A DNA stretch of 64,000 nt, taken from contig JAQMWT010000038.1 in the NCBI GenBank assembly GCA_029834535.1, positions 108,428 to 172,427 of the forward strand, written 5' to 3'. Position numbers and translations under genes: made by a program. The stretch's first letter is position 1; the number at the start of each line of letters is the position of its first letter. This document shows positions 8,427-16,556 of the stretch, piece after piece. Origin of the DNA: Chrysophaeum taylorii. Its lineage: Eukaryota; Sar; Pelagophyceae; Pelagomonadales; Pelagomonadaceae. The notes beneath the pieces were generated by a model that worked only from the letters and a program-made list of their open reading frames with translations, was not told the origin of the DNA and made no database searches.

Positions 8427-8430
8427 CCCG
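8427..8430. repeat. target-site duplication CCCG, left copy
   Basis: CCCG directly precedes the 5' LTR and is repeated directly after the 3' LTR at 16553-16556. A 4-5 bp duplication fits Ty3/gypsy-type integration. If the LTR were read one base shorter, the duplication would be ACCCG. Confidence 0.8.
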
Positions 8431-8781
8431 TGTGGCAGTAACGCCCATTTCCCCCGCTTGCCTGCCTGCCACCTGACTTACCCTGATTGTTGCCTTTTAT
8501 TGACCTTGCATTTATGAGGGGGGGGTGTCATCTCGACACCTTCCTTCACCTGCTGCGCTTCCACTACTGGACCCAATGTACCGGGCATTTTTGTATTGCT
8601 TTTAAGAATATCTTCTTGATATTACCTACCCTCTTTTGACTGTCCGATTTCGTGATGGCGTGAGGTATTACGCTGAGATCGGGCGTGTGGTGGTTTCACC
8701 CGCGGTTCGGGTTGGGAGGAAGGGTTGTTGAGACCCCCGGTCCGGCCAGGAGGGGCGGGTATCTGAGAGAAAACCACTACA
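8431..8781 (+). repeat. 5' LTR
   Basis: The 351-bp repeat starts TGTGGCAGTAACGCCC and ends AAAACCACTACA, and aligns along its whole length to 16227-16552. Differences include a 12-bp insertion relative to the 3' copy near 8545-8560 and several point changes. Its outer end lies 5 bp from the start codon of the VWA8-like gene, so this LTR occupies that gene's promoter position in antisense orientation. Confidence 0.95.
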
Positions 8782-8782
8782 G

Positions 8783-8800
8783 TGGTCTCAGAAACGGGAA
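8783..8800 (+). other. probable primer binding site
   Basis: One base after the 5' LTR comes TGGTCTCAGAAACGGGAA. A site starting with TGG is expected to pair with the CCA end of a tRNA, and the reverse complement continues into CGATTCCCG, which resembles a tRNA T-arm. I cannot name the tRNA. The first ten bases are also the exact reverse complement of 15763-15772 near the 3' end of the same element. Confidence 0.6.
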
Positions 8801-8828
8801 TCGATAGTCCAACTCCCGGACTATCGAT
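8800..8828 (+). other. hairpin next to primer site
   Basis: An 11-bp perfect inverted repeat (ATCGATAGTCC at 8800-8810 and its complement at 8818-8828) closes a 7-base loop right after the primer site. Retroelement leaders often fold here for packaging or dimerisation; that role is inferred from position only. Confidence 0.65.
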
Positions 8829-8978
8829 CGATCTCCTGTTTTTCGGCGGCGAGTCGGTTCGTAACGGTCGAGTGAGTGCGAAGCCGACGCATTTGTGGGT
8901 GAAGATCCAGAGGATCACGGGTACCGCCGCGGGGTTCATTTTACGTGATTCGGATCGAACGGGGAGCGGAGTCACTAC

Positions 8979-9218
8979 GACTCATTTTGCATAATTTTGC
9001 ATATTGTAAGGCATCGTTTTATAAGTCCTAACCTAGCTCGCGCGAGGCAGACCACCTCCCTGACGGCGAGCGACTACACCGGGAAGGCCGTCCATACTCA
9101 TTTTGCATACTTTTGCATATCGTCATATCGTAAGGCATTGTTATAAGACCTAACTATAGCTCGCCCAGGCAGACCACCTCCCTGACGGCGAGCGACTACA
9201 CCGGGAAGACTGTCCATA
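8979..9218 (+). repeat. tandem duplication, period about 117 bp
   Basis: Both units start GACTCATTTTGCATA, pass through GTAAGGCAT and CAGACCACCTCCCTGACGG, and end CGACTACACCGGGAAG. The second copy (from about 9096) has small indels. The repeat is inside the retroelement leader and is non-coding. Confidence 0.85.
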
Positions 9219-9544
9219 GTCGTCACGCGCAAGGCTACTGCTTCCATAAGACCAGCGCACCGGTACAGCGCGCAGTAGTCAGACGGCTGCCGGCAATTGT
9301 CGTCTGAAGAAATGAATACAACAAGTGAGTTGAGAACGTCCGGAACAAACCTATTATCCGGGCAAATCGCGATCATGGTAGAGAGGCCAATGACAGAACG
9401 ATCGCAGTGGTTTCGGGACGCACAGGGGCGTCTGCAACGATTCAGTGCAGGGACTCCATTTGCGTCTATTGGAAGAACACCGTTCAGTACGCCCTTTCAA
9501 CGGCAGGAAGCCGAGGAAAGCGGCATCGGAAGAGAGGCAAGATC

Positions 9545-9611
9545 CACAGGGGTATATATAGCCCCGGGCACTCGCACACACCAGGACCGGCTTTCCTACC
9601 CTCACCTTTTG
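9545..9611 (+). repeat. 67-bp direct repeat with TATA core, copy 1
   Basis: The unit carries GGGGTATATATAGCCCC followed by GGGCACTCGCACACACCAGG and ends CCTCACCTTTTG. It differs from the copy at 9917-9983 at a single base. The TATATATA core flanked by G and C runs looks like a core promoter. Confidence 0.85.
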
Positions 9612-9916
9612 GTTATGGGCCCTTAAAGCGCTCGAGGTGGATCACGCGTTCGAATCCGCCCCACCGCTGCGCCGCAAGGAGCGTGTGAGTGCCTTCGAAG
9701 TAGTTGCCATCGCCAACTGCTGGAGCCCCATCGTCTAGCACAAACACTAGACCCCCCTCATCTGGGCGCTTTCACTTACCAGGACCGGGTGTTCATCTCC
9801 GACGCAGATGTTCATCTTAAGCAGATGGCGTCGTCGTCTGCTGGGTCCCCATCGTCTCGCATACACATACATGCTTGACTCGCCCCAGATGTTCACGTTT
9901 CACTATGATGGGGAAG

Positions 9917-9983
9917 CACAGGGGTATATATAGCCCCGGGCACTCGCACACACCAGGACCGGCATTCCTACCCTCACCTTTTG
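9917..9983 (+). promoter_or_regulatory. 67-bp direct repeat with TATA core, copy 2; possible internal promoter
   Basis: This copy places TATATATA about 95 bp upstream of the first gag ATG (10023). The near-perfect conservation with copy 1, inside an element whose coding parts have decayed, suggests either a recent duplication or a retained function such as an internal start of transcription. Promoter function is inference. Confidence 0.4.
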
Positions 9984-10022
9984 AGATCATCTGATAGCCT
10001 CGACAGCCCCCCAAGCGTGGTC

Positions 10023-11192
10023 ATGCTTCCGGATCCTCGCGGCGGCGAAGGGGGAGCTACGGTTGCGTCAGACGCAACTTCAAGACAAGGTGAGCCGACG
10101 TTCCCGTACGCACGACCCTACGAACGTGCGATGAATACTACGGAGTCATCTCGAGCGGAACCCGAACAGTTTACGGCGATGCGTGGACCAGAGGAGAGTG
10201 CACCTCCTAGGCCACCATCTGTGAATACGAGAGGGACAGATTTTCGCGGGGATGTCGACCCCGAGGTTCTGCAGACCATCAACGAACGATTCGAGATGTA
10301 CCAGTCGCAGATGGAGCAAATCATACGTGAACTTGAGAACACCCGCCGCGACGCTCAACAACAACGCTCAGAAGTGGAGCGACAGCGGATCGACAACGAT
10401 CGACTTCGGCGAATGATGGAGGAATCCATGCGGGCGCATGCTCGAGAGGCACGGCCAACCTCTCCGAATGCTACGCGTGTTACGCCCGACGACGATGATG
10501 ACGCTGTATCGGCACTGACCGACGATCAGCCACCGCGAAGTCGACCGGAGCCTACCCCGCACCATCATACTGACCCCGGTTCGGCGCGTCCTCGTGACGA
10601 AGAAGAAATACTTCGTATCAGGAAGGGAGCTGCTGGTATGACACGTATCACATTCTCGAATCTCACGGGGCAAATTACCAAGGACCGTGATGAGGTGGAC
10701 GCGTGGTGGATGCAATTGCGGCGTATGATGGAGGGAAAGATTGATAAACCCTCAATAGCGATGAACGTGATTGGAGGCGAGTATCAACTCGCCCCTATGG
10801 GAGCTTATCGCAAGTGGGAAGTTGAACGACCGCAGATGTGGAAACAATACAAGGATGGGACCATCACAATGAAAGAGTTGCGCCAGCATGATGAGGACTG
10901 TCTGGATGCTATGCAAGAAGCGACGAAGCTTCCTTGTCCACCTCGGGCTACGGTTGAGGAGCTTGAACGTGAATGGTTCAATTTACGGCAAGGGAATTTG
11001 TCACGAGATCCGCCTCTTTGGCGTATGTGCCTGTGGCTATCTCTTCGCAAGATGGTTCGAAATATTCCATCATCGCTGCCGGCTTGGATGGCATGGCTGA
11101 TTCCCCGTACATCGATCACCGCTTGTATCGCAAACTTGATCGTGACGGCAAAATCATCTATCATCAGCCACTCCCTACGATTCGTACTCTAA
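10023..11192 (+). CDS. retrotransposon Gag-like polyprotein
   Basis: The frame encodes about 390 residues from the ATG at 10023. A disordered N-terminus is followed by a coiled coil (from about DPEVLQTINERFEMYQSQ to MMEESMRAHARE, with an evenly spaced charged/Leu pattern), an acidic and Pro-rich linker, and a helical capsid-like region (ITFSNLTGQ to EELEREWFNL). No zinc knuckle is visible. The last 60 or so residues of this frame are probably not real, because the protease coding signal is in the -1 frame from about 11010. Identification rests on position and architecture; there is no diagnostic Gag motif. Confidence 0.7.
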   Translation: MLPDPRGGEGGATVASDATSRQGEPTFPYARPYERAMNTTESSRAEPEQFTAMRGPEESAPPRPPSVNTRGTDFRGDVDPEVLQTINERFEMYQSQMEQIIRELENTRRDAQQQRSEVERQRIDNDRLRRMMEESMRAHAREARPTSPNATRVTPDDDDDAVSALTDDQPPRSRPEPTPHHHTDPGSARPRDEEEILRIRKGAAGMTRITFSNLTGQITKDRDEVDAWWMQLRRMMEGKIDKPSIAMNVIGGEYQLAPMGAYRKWEVERPQMWKQYKDGTITMKELRQHDEDCLDAMQEATKLPCPPRATVEELEREWFNLRQGNLSRDPPLWRMCLWLSLRKMVRNIPSSLPAWMAWLIPRTSITACIANLIVTAKSSIISHSLRFVL

Positions 11193-11389
11193 ATGGGTCA
11201 GGAGGCTCGGGAGCTGCTATTCGAGAATGGGTCATCCTCCGGATCTCCTTGGTGCCGACGACATCCATGCTGCTCATGTTCTTCGTTGGTCGAACGAATG
11301 GGCAGTTACTATTAGGAGCACGAGAATTACGACTCTTGGGTACGATTTTGGATTATGCGACAGAGCTATTTTTCGGCGTTCTGAAGTGA
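11010..11389 (+). CDS. retropepsin-like protease domain with altered active site
   Basis: In frame 2, one base back from gag, the sequence YSIIAAGLDGMADSPYID followed by a flap-like TLNGSGGSG and then LLLGARELRLLGTILDY matches the layout of a retroelement aspartic protease (DTGA strand, flap, ILGR strand). The usual DTGA or DSGA is replaced by DGMA. The related element near 62990 has the same DGMAD, so the change belongs to the lineage and is not a private mutation. It would be made by -1 frameshifting from gag or is already decayed; I see no clear slippery heptamer. Confidence 0.6.
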
Positions 11390-13458
11390 CCATTGGAGTT
11401 CTCAAGAATCGGACTTCCGCCTCGCCACAAGACCAGCATGGAATTGTCCTTTACAATGATGCATTCGATGCGACTCCGCAGGTAGTGCAGATGTTCCCGA
11501 CAGCTAAGCTTGCTGTGCAATACGGAAACATCCAAACTTGGACGCCAGTTGGTAAACCGTGGAGTTATGACAGTCTATTGCGTTCTATTCGTATCAGAGC
11601 GAATCACCATCACATTCCTTCCGGTGATCAGACTGCTGGAAAAGCTGAAGACCAACTTGAATGCCCTGTAGACGAGGAAGATATCATCCCTCATTTCGCG
11701 TACGTGACGAGTACCCGATTTCTTCTTCCAAGCCAACCGTACTTCTTGGAGATGGAGTGCGATGTGCCGCTGGAAAAGGGTCACGTATTCCGAGCTCATC
11801 GGTCACTCCTCCAAGATCTCCGCCTTGTACCCGGCTCCTATTCATCGTATTGTGCCGATGAGCCCAACGAAGTTCACGTGGCTGTGGAGCACATTGGTGA
11901 CGAACCCATTGGTATCGACCCCGAAGTCCCGGTGGTCGAAGGCGAGATCATACCGCATGAAGGATGTGTCAACATGCAGCTAGAAGCCACTGATGACGTG
12001 TGTCATGCCACTCTTACGGCTGGTGTTGACGACGACGAAGTCAAGGAGGATGTCTTGAGTGACAAACCTCCTCCTCAGCCACCTCCAGATGAAGAAGTGA
12101 AAAAAACACCAGAAATGGAGATGGAGGCGACTGTTAAGGAGCTGCTATCTGAGCACGCCTCTTTGGTTTGGATACCCATCACCTACACCTTTGTCGTCGT
12201 CTATTTTGCTGGCGCTGGAGGATCAACGTTGGGTATTCGGCGATGCAATGAGCTATATGGCAGTTCATTTCGCATTGTCCTGGCTTTGGATGCTTGTCCT
12301 CAAGCCCGAGCCACCTTTGAACTCAATTTTCCGAAGATTCCCTATGTTTTGCATGAGTTGGGGAAATCTCATCGTCGTACATACGACTTGGTGTTGTCGT
12401 ATTTACACTCAGATTTTAGGAAGCACTCTTATTTTCACGCCAGTCCGCCGTGTATCTATGGATCGACTGCCAATTTGCACTACAGGGACGCACGCAAGGG
12501 CGCTACTATTACTTCTTGGGTCCTGCGTCATTTCCGCAACGCACCTTATGTGATTGGACGATGGACACTCGAGCACGAACCATCAGTGATCCCTTTGGTG
12601 CATCACCAATTTTATGTGCCGCGTATTGTTGATTTCTATAGTATCACGCCAGAGCTGCTGTGCTCGCGCACGCGCCTACTTGCTTGCAATGTTGGCTTGG
12701 AACTGCCGTTATTATCGCGTGTACCACCGAATTTACGGGACCGTTTTGGCCCAGCGTTGGGATTTACAGGTGGTCACCCGCTCATTATAGTGAACAGTTT
12801 CTCATCTACGCGCCCGGCTATCGGCCCTGCCTTCACGGTGACGCGCAATAAGCTCCGCTTAGGACCTCATTTCTCGAACACCCGTCCACTCACGTTGCAG
12901 ATGCACCAGGAAATTATGACCATTCCTGCTACGTGGCAATGGGGTGCGACAGTTTCCGAGACAGTAGCTATGAAGATGCTTGGCAGTATGGTGCCACCCG
13001 CGACTATGACGCGGATTGCGCTAGCAGTGCACAATTCGTTTGAACCTTCACTTCGAAATTTGGGTAAGTTGCGGAATATTGCGACGACTACGCTAGCCCG
13101 ACCTGATCACCATATTCTACGGTTTTCACCTTTTGCTGTAGAGTCGCGCATTCCAACGCTCGACCCTGCCACTCGAAGTGTATCATGGATTGCGCCCGAT
13201 GAACTGTATTCTTCTGCGAGTCCTGCACCATCCGCTGCTGCCACCACCACCCCGCCACCGCCTTCAGTTACATCGCCTGGGACGGCTTCATCTTTTGCAG
13301 GGGGCACCGTCGCCACTGCTGTTATGCAGAGCAACCAAGTTGATAACCAGCCCTCCGCAACTGCTGAAGAAGAAGGCACCGCGAAAGAGCGACCAGCGTA
13401 TTTCAATACGTACGACGTTCCGTGGGCGGACACGCCTCACGACGAACTAACTAACTAA
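11227..13458 (+). CDS. DNA (cytosine-5) methyltransferase in a retroelement ORF
   Basis: The open frame is 743 codons from ATG 11227. Residues 1-60 overlap the protease in another frame. About 140-310 form a beta-rich domain (IIPHFAYVTSTRFLLPS) that recurs in the second element. From about 320 the C5-methyltransferase motifs appear in order: motif I FAGAGGSTLGI (about 325), the acidic strand LALDACPQA, catalytic motif IV ASPPCIYGS with the PPC cysteine (about 406), motif VI EHEPS, where ENV is usual (about 448), motif VIII SRTRLL (about 479), and motifs IX-X MTIPATWQWG and MLGSMVPPATMTRIALAV (about 570-590). The enzyme transfers a methyl group from SAM to cytosine C5. The tail is Pro/Ser/Ala-rich. 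No targeting domain is recognised. Unlike the downstream reverse transcriptase, this frame has no break. Confidence 0.85.
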   Translation: MGHPPDLLGADDIHAAHVLRWSNEWAVTIRSTRITTLGYDFGLCDRAIFRRSEVTIGVLKNRTSASPQDQHGIVLYNDAFDATPQVVQMFPTAKLAVQYGNIQTWTPVGKPWSYDSLLRSIRIRANHHHIPSGDQTAGKAEDQLECPVDEEDIIPHFAYVTSTRFLLPSQPYFLEMECDVPLEKGHVFRAHRSLLQDLRLVPGSYSSYCADEPNEVHVAVEHIGDEPIGIDPEVPVVEGEIIPHEGCVNMQLEATDDVCHATLTAGVDDDEVKEDVLSDKPPPQPPPDEEVKKTPEMEMEATVKELLSEHASLVWIPITYTFVVVYFAGAGGSTLGIRRCNELYGSSFRIVLALDACPQARATFELNFPKIPYVLHELGKSHRRTYDLVLSYLHSDFRKHSYFHASPPCIYGSTANLHYRDARKGATITSWVLRHFRNAPYVIGRWTLEHEPSVIPLVHHQFYVPRIVDFYSITPELLCSRTRLLACNVGLELPLLSRVPPNLRDRFGPALGFTGGHPLIIVNSFSSTRPAIGPAFTVTRNKLRLGPHFSNTRPLTLQMHQEIMTIPATWQWGATVSETVAMKMLGSMVPPATMTRIALAVHNSFEPSLRNLGKLRNIATTTLARPDHHILRFSPFAVESRIPTLDPATRSVSWIAPDELYSSASPAPSAAATTTPPPPSVTSPGTASSFAGGTVATAVMQSNQVDNQPSATAEEEGTAKERPAYFNTYDVPWADTPHDELTN

Positions 13459-13938
13459 CTTCAGACCTCTCCCGAGCATGGGAGCCAGGCCGGACCGACA
13501 GGTGCCAGTCCGGAATCACGGGCCTGTAGACGAGGAGCGCCGAAAGGTCGGTCGGCGGAGAGTGACCATCAAGCTTGTCGCCATGCGACGAGGAGACCGC
13601 GATGTGACTGACAACCAGCTCGTCGATAACCTTCCGTCTTCGCCCCCCGGCCATACCCCGCCCCACTGCGAACGTTCCGGCTGCCAACCGGCCCGCCCGG
13701 GAGGCGAATAGGTGCCAACCTACGCCGGGAGGGCGGATGCCCTCGCAAGGCTCAGGATTCATGAGGCACCGTCCTCCATCGCAACCACAGTCGGCGATCA
13801 GGGTCACGACGAACATGGTCAACCTTCACCGGTGATGCCTCCTCATTTAGCGGATCAGGAGAGCATGCAGGTCATCCCTCCGACCGTCGCGCAGGTCGAA
13901 GAGGTGATGACTGAATTGGTATTACAGAGCATCCTGCC
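13459..13938 (+). other. linker between methyltransferase and reverse transcriptase
   Basis: After the methyltransferase stop the coding signal is weak. A frame-2 ORF (13712-13942) ends EEVMTELVLQSILP and probably runs toward the reverse transcriptase N-terminus, which continues in frame 1 from about 13905 (EHPALNDDEK). The mismatch in frame marks a frameshift near 13905-13940. Confidence 0.45.
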
Positions 13939-14578
13939 TTAAATGATGACGAGAAGTTGATGATGAAGCCTTTAATCTCGTATTCGTGGGCATTTTTCGA
14001 TGATGTGATGAGACCTGTTGATTCACCAGAAGTGACGCTCCGGTTCAAAGAAGAGAACCCGACTCCCTTCAAACTCTCGCCATATCGGTTGTCGAAAGAA
14101 AAGATTGAATGTTTGCGGATGCAGATTGAAGCATGGACCCGAGACGGAGTTATTCGTCCCGCGAATTCTCCGTGGTGCTGAGCCTGGCACTTCCAATGCT
14201 TACAGAGCAGCTGTCGACCTACGGCGCCTCAATGCATTGCTCAAGGATGATAGCTGGCCGAGTGTGAGCATGACTGACGCGTTGATGTTTCTCATTGACA
14301 AGTTTTGTCGTTCCAGTTTGGATATTCGTTGGGGCTATCACAATTTACGATTGTCGCTGGATGCACAAGATGTGGTCACCTTCACTAGTCCTCTGGGAGC
14401 GTACAGCTACATGCGTCTACCTTTGGGAGTCAAACCAGCCGGAAGTTTGTTTTGCAAGCAGTTGAACACTGACTTGTCGCAATGGCTATATCGTGATCTC
14501 GTGGCATGTACGCCGGTCACGCAGATACAAAGAATCACTTGCAGTGCCTTGTGCAAGTTATTCCCCATCTCGCCTTGA
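13939..14578 (+). pseudogene. Ty3-type reverse transcriptase, frameshifted, YxDD missing
   Basis: Frame 1 (to about 14170) carries the N-terminal segment FKLSPYRLSKEKIE to WTRDGVIRPANSP. The signal then moves to frame 2 with AVDLRRLNALL, motif A SSLDIRWGYHNLRL, and VTFTSPLGAYSYMRLPLGVKPAG. At about 14500 it returns to frame 1. Where motif C (YxDD) should stand, between VAC and DTKNHLQ, only a few residues without the Asp pair are present. At least two frameshifts and a small deletion have removed the catalytic box, so this copy cannot encode an active polymerase. Confidence 0.85.
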
Positions 14579-15663
14579 AGGAGTACAGCGCCAAGATCAA
14601 GAAGATTCATTTTATGCAAGAAGTCATTGAGTTTTTGGGTCATTTATCTACCCCGAACGGACTTCTTCCATCACCAAGATCTTTAGAAGCCATCAGACAC
14701 ATGCCAATTCCTGGCACTTTGTCGGATGCTGACCCTAAGAAGCAAGTGCGATCTTTCCTTGGAATGGGGAGCTTTTGCCGGCGTTATGTAAGGAATTTTG
14801 CGAAAGTTGCAGAGCCATTAAGACAACTGACGTTGCCGGACGTGAAATTCAAGTGGACGAAAGAGTGTCAGGAAGCTTGGGATGCCATCATCGAGGCTAT
14901 TGTCACGTCGAAGGGCGTCTATCATCCTGATTACTCATTACCTTTTTACATTCGAGCTGATGCTTCCGCGCATGGGTTGGGTGCTTACCTATTTCAAAAA
15001 GTACCAGTCGTTGACGACGATGGAAGAGAAAGAATCGAAGAGAGAGTTATAGAGTACTGGAGTCGAACCGTGCCTAAGTCGATGAGGAAGTATGATCCTC
15101 GGCGCTTGGAACTCCTCGCAGTACTCTCTGCTCTCGAAAATTTCCGATTTTATATCGAAGGTCATCATACGAAGTTAGAGACGGCTCATCGTAATTTGAC
15201 GTTTCTGCGGGATTCGAATCATACGTCTGGACAGTTAGCACGATGGGCTATGCGGCTTGCTGCGTTCGACCGGGAGCCCGGATACAAACCTGGAAGCTCC
15301 CCTGGCATGCGTATTCCGGATTGTCTGTCGCGCAACCCTATCGACAAATTGATCGAGAAAGACGAAGACGGGGAACCGATCAATGAAGCTTTTTTGATTT
15401 TCCAAGAAATCCCCACCGATGTCCCTGGCGCCGCTTGCTTCACCTTCTCTTCGGTGACGATGCCTATGCTGACGGACAGCGGACCCACCGCAGCTATGGT
15501 AGCAGTTAGTACGCGACAGAACGTACAACCGCCTCAATTCTCGTACGACTCTGAGCCAGTTGACTCCGTCGAACGTCTCCCTTTTGCGGATCAAGCGGAG
15601 GATGAGATCACACTCGATGAGATAGCGAAAGAACAAGCTGACGGATTACTACTCGGACGTTGA
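14506..15663 (+). CDS. reverse transcriptase thumb and RNase H domain
   Basis: This frame is still open for 385 codons (the first ATG-like codon is inside the broken polymerase). It covers the polymerase thumb (VIEFLGHLSTPNGLLPS, FLGMGSFCRRYVRNFAKVAEPL) and a Ty3-type RNase H: IRADASAHGLGAYLFQ with the first Asp, then RRLELLAVLSALENFRFYIEG with the Glu, LETAHRNLTFL and MRIPDCLSRNPID. It ends with a disordered tail. RNase H would degrade the RNA strand during reverse transcription. No integrase follows it. Confidence 0.8.
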   Translation: MYAGHADTKNHLQCLVQVIPHLALKEYSAKIKKIHFMQEVIEFLGHLSTPNGLLPSPRSLEAIRHMPIPGTLSDADPKKQVRSFLGMGSFCRRYVRNFAKVAEPLRQLTLPDVKFKWTKECQEAWDAIIEAIVTSKGVYHPDYSLPFYIRADASAHGLGAYLFQKVPVVDDDGRERIEERVIEYWSRTVPKSMRKYDPRRLELLAVLSALENFRFYIEGHHTKLETAHRNLTFLRDSNHTSGQLARWAMRLAAFDREPGYKPGSSPGMRIPDCLSRNPIDKLIEKDEDGEPINEAFLIFQEIPTDVPGAACFTFSSVTMPMLTDSGPTAAMVAVSTRQNVQPPQFSYDSEPVDSVERLPFADQAEDEITLDEIAKEQADGLLLGR

Positions 15664-15701
15664 GCGGATTTTTGTGCGTCTCAAGACAAAAAGCGAGCCC
15701 A

Positions 15702-15783
15702 GGAGACCACCCACAGTCTCCGAAAAGAGGCAGAAAGAAGGCCGGAGAGACCAACCATAGTCTCTGAGACCAACCATAGTCTC
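15702..15783 (+). repeat. three hairpins of form GAGAC-loop-GTCTC
   Basis: GGAGAC/GTCTCC at 15702-15721, AGAGAC/GTCTCT at 15746-15765 and GAGAC/GTCTC at 15766-15783 each close a loop of about 8 bases, and the last two loops are identical (CAACCATA). The sequence TCTGAGACCA at 15763-15772 is the exact complement of the first ten bases of the primer site. Confidence 0.8.
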
Positions 15784-16210
15784 TGGCGAGGCAAAAGGCT
15801 TGTGCCGTGTAAGTCCGTCGCACCGGTCAACCGCGCGAGTCGAACAGTAGCCGGCAAATTTTGCTGCTCGACGAGAAGTTTTGGTGTTCGAGCTAGCCGT
15901 TGATATCCGAGAGAAACCGCACCATGGAAACTAGAGGAGACTGACGTTTGTTCTGCGACCGCTTCTGCTGAAGAACGACGCTTATGACCAGAAGACAAAG
16001 ATCCTGACGGAGGTAGCTTCACATGCCTACGACCCAACATGGAGGGCTGTGAACCCTGTGTGACTGATTTTCGCCCGGATGAAATCGATGTCCTCGTCAC
16101 TAACTTCGGTCTGCACAGCAACAAAGTTCCTGCTGATGTAGCTGAACGAGCTTATCGTACCATTCGTGAGCATGACCTTCGTCACCCTTGAAGTCGAGGA
16201 CGACTTCATC

Positions 16211-16226
16211 TCAAGTAGGGGGCTCC
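16211..16226 (+). other. probable polypurine tract
   Basis: A purine-rich run (AAGTAGGGGG) lies 3 bases before the 3' LTR, the position where plus-strand DNA synthesis is primed. It is short and interrupted by pyrimidines, so the call is tentative. Confidence 0.45.
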
Positions 16227-16552
16227 TGTGGCAGTAACGCCCATTTCCCCCACTTGCCTGCCTGCCACCTGACTTACCCTGATTGTTGCCCTGGTATTGA
16301 CCTTGCATTTATGAGGGGGGGTGTCATCTCGACACCTTCGCTTCCACTGGACCCAATGTACCGGGCATTTGTATTGCTTTCTTCCTGTCTTCTTGATATT
16401 ACCCTCTTTTGATTGTCCGATTTCGTGATGGCGTGAGGTATTACGCTGAGATCGGGCGTGTGGTGGTTTCACCCGTGGTTCGGGTTGGGAGGAAGGGTTG
16501 TTGAGGCCCCCGGTCCGGCCAGGAGGGGCGGGTATCTGAGAAAACCACTACA
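16227..16552 (+). repeat. 3' LTR
   Basis: The 326-bp copy of the LTR begins TGTGGCAGTAACGCCC and ends AAAACCACTACA and is followed by the CCCG duplication. It lacks 12 bp and several smaller pieces present in the 5' copy and carries a handful of substitutions. Confidence 0.95.
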
Positions 16553-16556
16553 CCCG
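16553..16556. repeat. target-site duplication CCCG, right copy
   Basis: This copy matches 8427-8430. Joining the flanks across the element restores the original upstream region of the VWA8-like gene; in that order a TAA precedes the ATG at 8425 in frame with no ATG between them, so the annotated start does not depend on the insertion. Confidence 0.8.

What the first reader, a model, noticed from the sequence alone, without database searches (positions are those of the whole stretch)
11227..13458. LTR retrotransposon that carries its own DNA cytosine-5 methyltransferase
Seen: inside an element bounded by two LTRs, a 743-codon frame has the C5-methyltransferase motifs in order, including the PPC catalytic cysteine, with motif VI as EHEP in place of ENV. 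Known: such captures were described in Klebsormidium and in dinoflagellate retrotransposons. Inference: this looks like a stramenopile example, possibly an independent capture. The enzyme might methylate the element's own copies and so affect silencing or host tolerance.
Basis: partly seen in the sequence, partly recalled or inferred. Interest (0 to 1): 0.88.

Follow-up and report, generated by a model that had tools for sequence, protein, structure and literature searches.

The report
Retrotransposons carrying a DNA-methylating enzyme
In the genome of an alga, jumping genes of two different classes each carry an enzyme that looks able to methylate DNA; in the class studied closely selection has kept it as intact as the copying machinery, so these parasites may write the very mark that hosts use to silence them.

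Summary
Confirmed and extended. The window holds an LTR element (8431-16552; LTRs 351 and 326 bp; CCCG flanks) with a real C5-cytosine methyltransferase domain (PF00145, E 8.6e-9). In another copy of the same 70.8-Mb genome one 2115-aa frame holds PR-like, MTase, RT, RNase H and integrase: a Ty3/gypsy element with the MTase between protease and RT. Capped searches give 71 and 154 matches for this family and 150 for a diverged gypsy family. MTase dN/dS between subfamilies is 0.062, like integrase and unlike the linkers. Motif VI is E-Q-E-P; among 18 copies EHEP is only in the window's. Unexpectedly, a Ty1/copia family in the same genome carries a second, very different C5-MTase after its protease-like stretch. 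DNMT2-like and DNMT5-like genes are separate. The kind is known (KnitGypsy-Dnmt3, SymbioDIRS-Dnmt3); the enzyme type and the gypsy-copia pair appear new in what I could search. Activity, target and host species are untested; the CpG test gave no support.

The parts
8427..8430 (.). target-site duplication, left copy (CCCG)
8431..8781 (+). 5' LTR (351 bp, TGTGG...CTACA)
9545..9983 (+). about 440-bp insertion bounded by a 67-bp direct repeat (9545-9611, 9917-9983), absent from the 4 other copies aligned
10035..11000 (+). Gag-like frame by position (38% to L012 polyprotein residues 57-428; no Pfam gag match); followed by a deletion of about 1.4 kb relative to L010, L011 and L022
11003..11386 (+). 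protease-like segment by position and look (68-74% to L012/L013; no Pfam match), in another frame than the MTase in this copy
11365..13446 (+). methyltransferase-bearing part of Pol (68-69% identity to L012/L013)
12205..13050 (+). C5-cytosine methyltransferase domain core: motif I FAGAGG 12205-12222, motif IV SPPC to 12453, motif VI EHEP 12571-12582, motif VIII RxR 12667-12675, motif X VPP 12991-12999
13445..13804 (+). about 360-bp repeat inserted between MTase and RT; further copies in other loci in both orientations
13915..15642 (+). reverse transcriptase and RNase H (Ty3/gypsy type), broken by frameshifts; RNase H over its Pfam cut-off, RT below it in this copy
15946..16188 (+). remnant of the polyprotein C-terminus (70% to L013 residues 2035-2115 of that frame); integrase itself missing
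16227..16552 (+). 3' LTR (326 bp)
16553..16556 (.). target-site duplication, right copy (CCCG)

Best explanation
It is a decayed copy of a large, well-conserved lineage of Ty3/gypsy LTR retrotransposons that took up a C5-cytosine methyltransferase long ago and make it as a Pol domain between protease and reverse transcriptase. Shown by sequence: the domain, its place, its many copies, its presence in two diverged gypsy families, and purifying selection like that on Pol. Inferred: the MTase is packaged with RT and integrase and methylates the element's own DNA copy (or the insertion site) at or soon after reverse transcription; the host's DNMT5-like enzyme would then keep that mark through replication. 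This would shield new copies from being treated as foreign, or damp excess copying so that the host tolerates the family.
For: PF00145 over its cut-off for the window domain and matching 9 of 9 rows. A free-standing C5-MTase (P0006, origin not given) as query finds 105 places in this genome, of which 48 lie at listed family-3 (42) or family-1 (6) gypsy places; 57 are not in my capped lists and unassigned. L013: PF00145, RVT_1, RT_RNaseH, Integrase_H2C2 and rve (rve under its cut-off) in one 2115-aa frame. Gypsy families 1 and 3 align over 647 columns at 31% including the MTase, so the capture predates their split. dN/dS between subfamilies 1a and 1b: MTase 0.062, RT 0.030, RNase H 0.054, IN 0.056, PR 0.106, linkers 0.21 and 0.39; within 1a the MTase has the lowest ratio of the seven segments, 0.24. 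Catalytic Cys, motif-VI Glu and both Arg of RxR are kept in 17 of 18 copies. A DNMT5-like gene is present: E 3e-143 to 7r76 (deposited as 'DNA repair protein Rad8', that this is Cryptococcus Dnmt5 is recalled).
Against: No activity data. No clear CpG decay: C>T difference between gypsy copies 0.0230 at CG against 0.0239 at CC, 0.0275 at CT and 0.0124 at CA; copia 0.0432 at CG against 0.0359, 0.0475 and 0.0245. Element CpG o/e is 1.06, below the rest of the window (1.35) but not depleted. Motif VI is not ENV, and L013, the long-frame copy, reads VPH rather than VPP in motif X. AlphaFold models were too poor to use (mean pLDDT 36.0 and 32.4). In the dN/dS test dS is near saturation, pairs are not independent, and L021 was left out. 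Many copies carry stops or frameshifts.
Confidence: 0.6

Rival explanations
1. The domain keeps the methyltransferase fold but works on RNA (genomic RNA, tRNA primer or RNA:DNA hybrid) rather than DNA.
For: The best, though weak, fold match is DNMT2 (from a low-confidence model; DNMT3A also appears lower in that list). No clear CpG decay. The same idea was raised for SymbioLINE-Dnmt (PMC5890265, discussion read).
Against: Sequence profile hits are to DNA MTases. The DNMT2-type PPCQPxTR motif seen in the host DNMT2-like gene is absent; the family reads SPPCIYGS.
Confidence: 0.2
2. The domain is catalytically dead and kept as a structural or nucleic-acid-binding part of Pol.
For: Motif VI is EQE, not ENV; L013 has VPH in motif X; no clear trace of CpG mutation bias.
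Against: FxGAGG, PPC, motif-VI Glu, RxR and VPP are invariant in the 8 gypsy family-1 rows and the family-3 row of A1 (which does not hold L013). Of 18 copies, 15 keep the eleven positions checked apart from the window's Q-to-H, two have one change each, one is decayed.
Confidence: 0.15
3. The MTase acts in trans against other DNA, such as algal DNA viruses or rival elements, so that carriers protect the host.
For: Proposed in general for transposon-borne methylases (PMC6338049, passages seen). Many copies.
Confidence: 0.05
4. A host gene that happens to lie between LTRs, or a one-copy hitchhiker.
For: 14 of 107 family-1 RT matches have no MTase match in my capped list; not followed up for want of letters.
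Against: 71 matches and 154 (pieces of one copy counted apart); MTase upstream of 93 of 107 family-1 RTs; one frame with RT and IN in L013; purifying selection.
Confidence: 0.01

Closest known systems
KnitGypsy-Dnmt3 of Klebsormidium nitens (PMC5890265; parts 1-3 of 7 and the discussion read)
   Same: LTR/gypsy element with a C5-MTase domain inside Pol, several intronless copies, purifying selection on the MTase
   Different: That enzyme is a Dnmt3 and its repeats are described as arranged like those of a DIRS element. Here the window copy has ordinary flanking LTRs with a 4-bp duplication, and the enzyme shows FAGAGG/SPPC/VPP motifs with EQE; no DNMT3 chain reached E 10 in the solved-structure search.
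SymbioDIRS-Dnmt3 and SymbioLINE-Dnmt of Symbiodinium (PMC5890265)
   Same: Retrotransposon-encoded C5-MTases in high copy number; SymbioLINE also has an enzyme outside the named eukaryotic classes
   Different: DIRS (tyrosine recombinase) and LINE elements, not integrase-bearing LTR elements
Orphan eukaryotic DNMTs (PMC12344493; section 5 read, passages)
   Same: MTases outside DNMT1/2/3/5/6, some in mobile elements; the paper also says that Dnmt3 members sit in LTR Copia and DIRS elements
   Different: Its main text has no hit for stramenopile, pelagophyte or Aureococcus, and no gypsy/copia pair of this kind is described in the section read
Free-standing C5-MTases P0004-P0012 (bacterial-type by size and motifs; origin not given) and phage family PHROG 116
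   Same: Best sequence relatives found: E 2.4e-4 for the A1 profile in the protein search, 1.1e-10 to PHROG 116 for the window domain
   Different: 29-33% identity over 26-33% of the domain; the 7 sequences read are single-domain proteins with canonical ENV

Membership tests
Ty3/gypsy LTR retrotransposon | Paired LTRs with short target-site duplication | tested here: met
   (window copy)
Ty3/gypsy LTR retrotransposon | Pol order PR-RT-RH-IN with RVT_1-type RT | tested here: met
   L013 (PR by position and look only, no Pfam hit; rve under its cut-off, Integrase_H2C2 over it); the window copy itself lacks IN
Ty3/gypsy LTR retrotransposon | tRNA primer-binding site | not tested
   no search made
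C5-cytosine DNA methyltransferase (PF00145) | Profile match over the curated cut-off | tested here: met
C5-cytosine DNA methyltransferase (PF00145) | Catalytic PPC cysteine | tested here: met
C5-cytosine DNA methyltransferase (PF00145) | Motif VI ENV | tested here: inconclusive
   Glu kept, N and V replaced: EQE in the family, EHE in the window
C5-cytosine DNA methyltransferase (PF00145) | Methyl transfer to cytosine C5 of DNA | not testable with these tools
   needs enzyme assay
KnitGypsy-Dnmt3 / SymbioDIRS-Dnmt3 type | MTase inside Pol of a multicopy retroelement under purifying selection | tested here: met
KnitGypsy-Dnmt3 / SymbioDIRS-Dnmt3 type | Enzyme of the DNMT3 clade | tested here: inconclusive
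   No DNMT3 chain at E up to 10; no DNMT3 in my tree
Derived from this host's DNMT5-like or DNMT2-like gene | Groups with them in a tree | tested here: inconclusive
   gypsy rows join neither; copia rows join the DNMT2-like row at 83/82 on very long branches
Ty1/copia element with MTase (second family, L053) | RVT_2-type RT with IN before RT, plus PF00145 in the same ORF | tested here: met
   PF00145 1.1e-7 and RVT_2 1.6e-38 over cut-off; rve 0.0061 below cut-off
Ty1/copia element with MTase (second family, L053) | Paired LTRs | tested here: inconclusive
   no repeat pair inside the 8.5 kb fetched; the ends may lie outside it

The most novel reading that the evidence does not exclude
In one algal genome two unrelated LTR superfamilies, Ty3/gypsy and Ty1/copia, each hold a C5-MTase of a previously unnamed kind at the same place in the polyprotein (just after the protease). 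If the host truly has only a DNMT5-like enzyme for maintenance, these parasites may be its main source of new DNA methylation: elements write the mark, the host copies it.
Probability: 0.25. Interest if true: 0.92.

Novelty: new variant of a known kind. Interest (0 to 1): 0.76.

Why it matters
Retroelements that carry the enzyme class used to silence them are a standing puzzle, characterised in PMC5890265 from two lineages. A further host, with a different enzyme type, two superfamilies carrying it and many copies, under selection in the family tested, points to a repeated benefit for the element rather than accident. It also makes a question testable: where de novo methylation comes from in algae that have a DNMT5-like maintenance enzyme but no obvious DNMT1 or DNMT3.

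Tried and rejected
Host gene between LTRs: rejected. Chance motif match: rejected. Protein search with region 291-640 of the window ORF: none at E 1e-3; with the copia alignment: none at 0.01 among the 7999 candidates scored. Viral contigs: none for either MTase. Structure prediction gave no usable models; the one fold search is therefore weak: best hit DNMT2 at 2.7e-3, 0 matches at 1e-3. Tree of gypsy, copia, host and free-standing MTases: one or two captures cannot be told apart, p-AU 0.207 for holding gypsy and copia together. CpG tests: no clear signal. The PF00145 search of the genome did not list the window's own family, so the lack of DNMT1/3/6 there is not proof of absence. Matches are not copies: pieces of one copy count apart, and near-duplicate contigs (C25/C521, C6/C268, C10/C297 give matches at almost the same places) inflate the counts.

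Full report
Observation. The ORF at 11227-13458 exists and is a C5-cytosine methyltransferase by Pfam (PF00145, 8.6e-9); NCBIfam TIGR00675 matches at 0.0011, below its cut-off. A plain search of solved structures with the ORF found nothing up to E 1; a 9-row profile found two chains up to E 10, both cytosine-specific methyltransferases, at 0.012 and 1. The LTRs, their TG...CA ends and the CCCG flanks are. Without gap columns the LTRs agree at 313 of 325 sites, so the insertion is not very recent.

Anatomy. The window copy is broken: an insertion of about 440 bp in the leader bounded by 67-bp repeats, a gag/PR deletion, frameshifts at about 11365 and within RT, a 360-bp repeat at 13445-13804, and loss of integrase. 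L013 keeps one 2115-aa frame with a PR-like stretch, MTase (PF00145 1.7e-6), RT (2.3e-12), RNase H (2.4e-25), Integrase_H2C2 (1.1e-16) and rve (1e-6, under its cut-off); L012 has one 2129-aa frame from a Gag-like stretch (no Pfam gag match) through MTase into RT. The MTase is therefore an integral Pol domain. L013's motif X reads VPH.

Copies. Family 1 (window): 71 matches, 60 of 1171 candidates scored; with a 150-aa MTase query 154 matches, 150 of 673 scored. Family 3 (202 of 647 alignment columns identical to family 1): 150 matches, 150 of 818 scored, open frames up to 3063 aa. The free-standing C5-MTase P0006 as query finds 105 places, 105 of 424 scored; 42 lie just upstream of a family-3 place, 6 at family-1 places, 57 are not in those capped lists and were not read. 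Matches are lower bounds for the search, but they count pieces apart and include near-duplicate contigs. RT-MTase linkage: of the 132 RT matches I used 108 (24 left out: 23 at 60-62% and one partial row), one more fell under my 74% limit, and 93 of the 107 left have an MTase match upstream.

Selection. NG86 dN/dS, 14 subfamily-1a copies against 3 of 1b (27-42 pairs a segment; L021 left out): MTase 0.062 (0.048-0.091), RT 0.030, RNase H 0.054, IN 0.056, PR 0.106, N-linker 0.213, C-linker 0.394. Within 1a (ratio of means; 36-91 pairs): MTase 0.236, IN 0.348, RNase H 0.384, PR 0.387, RT 0.413, linkers 0.53 and 0.64. dS is about 1.6 for MTase, N-linker, PR and IN and saturated for some RT pairs; RNase H has odd values (low dS, ratios out to 1.2 and one undefined), perhaps from recombination between subfamilies. 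Stops are absent from the MTase in 15 of 18 copies, and 15 of 18 keep the eleven positions checked apart from the window's Q-to-H at motif VI; two have one change each and one is decayed. The copia MTase was not tested for selection.

A second carrier. The genome-wide PF00145 search gave 57 places (123 of 474 candidates scored). Of the 30 fetched, one is DNMT2-like (1g55, 3.9e-39), one DNMT5-like (7r76, 3e-143), and 28 of the other 28 match one further retroelement family; 27 places were not fetched. The DNMT5 name rests on recall that 7r76, deposited as 'DNA repair protein Rad8', is Cryptococcus Dnmt5; the ATPase half of the gene was not read. L053 is Ty1/copia: a 544-aa frame in the Gag position (no Pfam hit), then a 1952-aa frame with a PR-like LIDGGASFC stretch, MTase (PF00145 1.1e-7), rve (0.0061, under its cut-off) and RVT_2 (1.6e-38). 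Its MTase has TLPCQHLS and a canonical ENVPP; the gypsy domain has no useful BLAST match to it. 73 matches were found, 61 of 795 candidates scored. Whether the two MTases come from one or two captures is open.

Origin. The nearest proteins are free-standing C5-MTases of unnamed source at 29-33% identity, and PHROG 116 at 1.1e-10 for the window domain. In the tree gypsy rows join neither host gene; copia rows join the DNMT2-like one at 83/82 on very long branches. Dnmt3 membership was not tested with a Dnmt3 reference; that Dnmt3 lacks the VPP form of motif X is recalled, not from a call.

Mechanism. Shown: place, conservation, selection. Inferred: co-packaging, methylation of cDNA or insertion site, maintenance by the DNMT5-like enzyme. 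Against: no clear CpG mutation excess between copies (gypsy: CG 0.0230, CC 0.0239, CT 0.0275, CA 0.0124; copia: CG 0.0432, CC 0.0359, CT 0.0475, CA 0.0245), and CpG o/e of 1.06 in the element against 1.35 in the rest of the window, a gap that may only follow base composition.

Literature. Seven searches. Read: PMC5890265 parts 1-3 of 7 and the discussion; PMC12344493 section 5 and passages; passages only of PMC9998398, PMC10538959, PMC6338049, PMC3145265, PMC12477816; all others as listings. PMC6338049 says that DAM- and DCM-encoding Ty3/gypsy and DIRS elements were found in Stramenopiles among others, without details in the passages seen. In what I read I found no report of non-Dnmt3 MTases in gypsy and copia elements of one alga; preprints and most subscription papers were not searchable.

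Host. Unnamed; 70.8 Mb, 697 contigs; 84 PF00504 (chlorophyll a/b-binding) matches. Stramenopile identity is plausible but not shown.

Noticed in passing
L053 (G000:C96:61500-69999), L034, L040 and others: A Ty1/copia family carries a second, very different C5-MTase after its protease-like stretch; 73 matches in the genome (61 of 795 candidates scored).
   Followed up: yes
L014:9628-10000 and L054:1-1400: A family-1 gypsy element sits directly beside a piece of a family-3 MTase element, probably one inserted in the other.
   Followed up: partly
window:10973-11386; L053 PR region: The protease-like segments read LDGMADS (gypsy) and LIDGGASFC (copia) in place of the usual D-T/S-G active-site motif (usual motif recalled).
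   Followed up: no
window:13445-13804: A 360-bp repeat with full-length or nearly full-length copies at 96-99% identity in several other loci and in both orientations, some beside or inside MTase elements: probably a non-autonomous mobile element.
   Followed up: partly
L009:6293-6652: The same 360-bp repeat lies inside the RT region of L009, so the last third of my RT query is repeat, not RT; most matches accordingly end near residue 187.
   Followed up: partly
window:4931-8425 (-): A dynein-related AAA_5 ATPase gene whose ORF start lies 6 bp from the element's 5' LTR.
   Followed up: no
window:2733-3461: Nine copies of an 81-nt (27-aa) tandem repeat; likeness to ankyrin-like repeats is by eye.
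   Followed up: no
G000 contigs C25/C521, C6/C268, C10/C297: Matches at nearly the same places on paired contigs suggest retained haplotype duplicates in the assembly.
   Followed up: no
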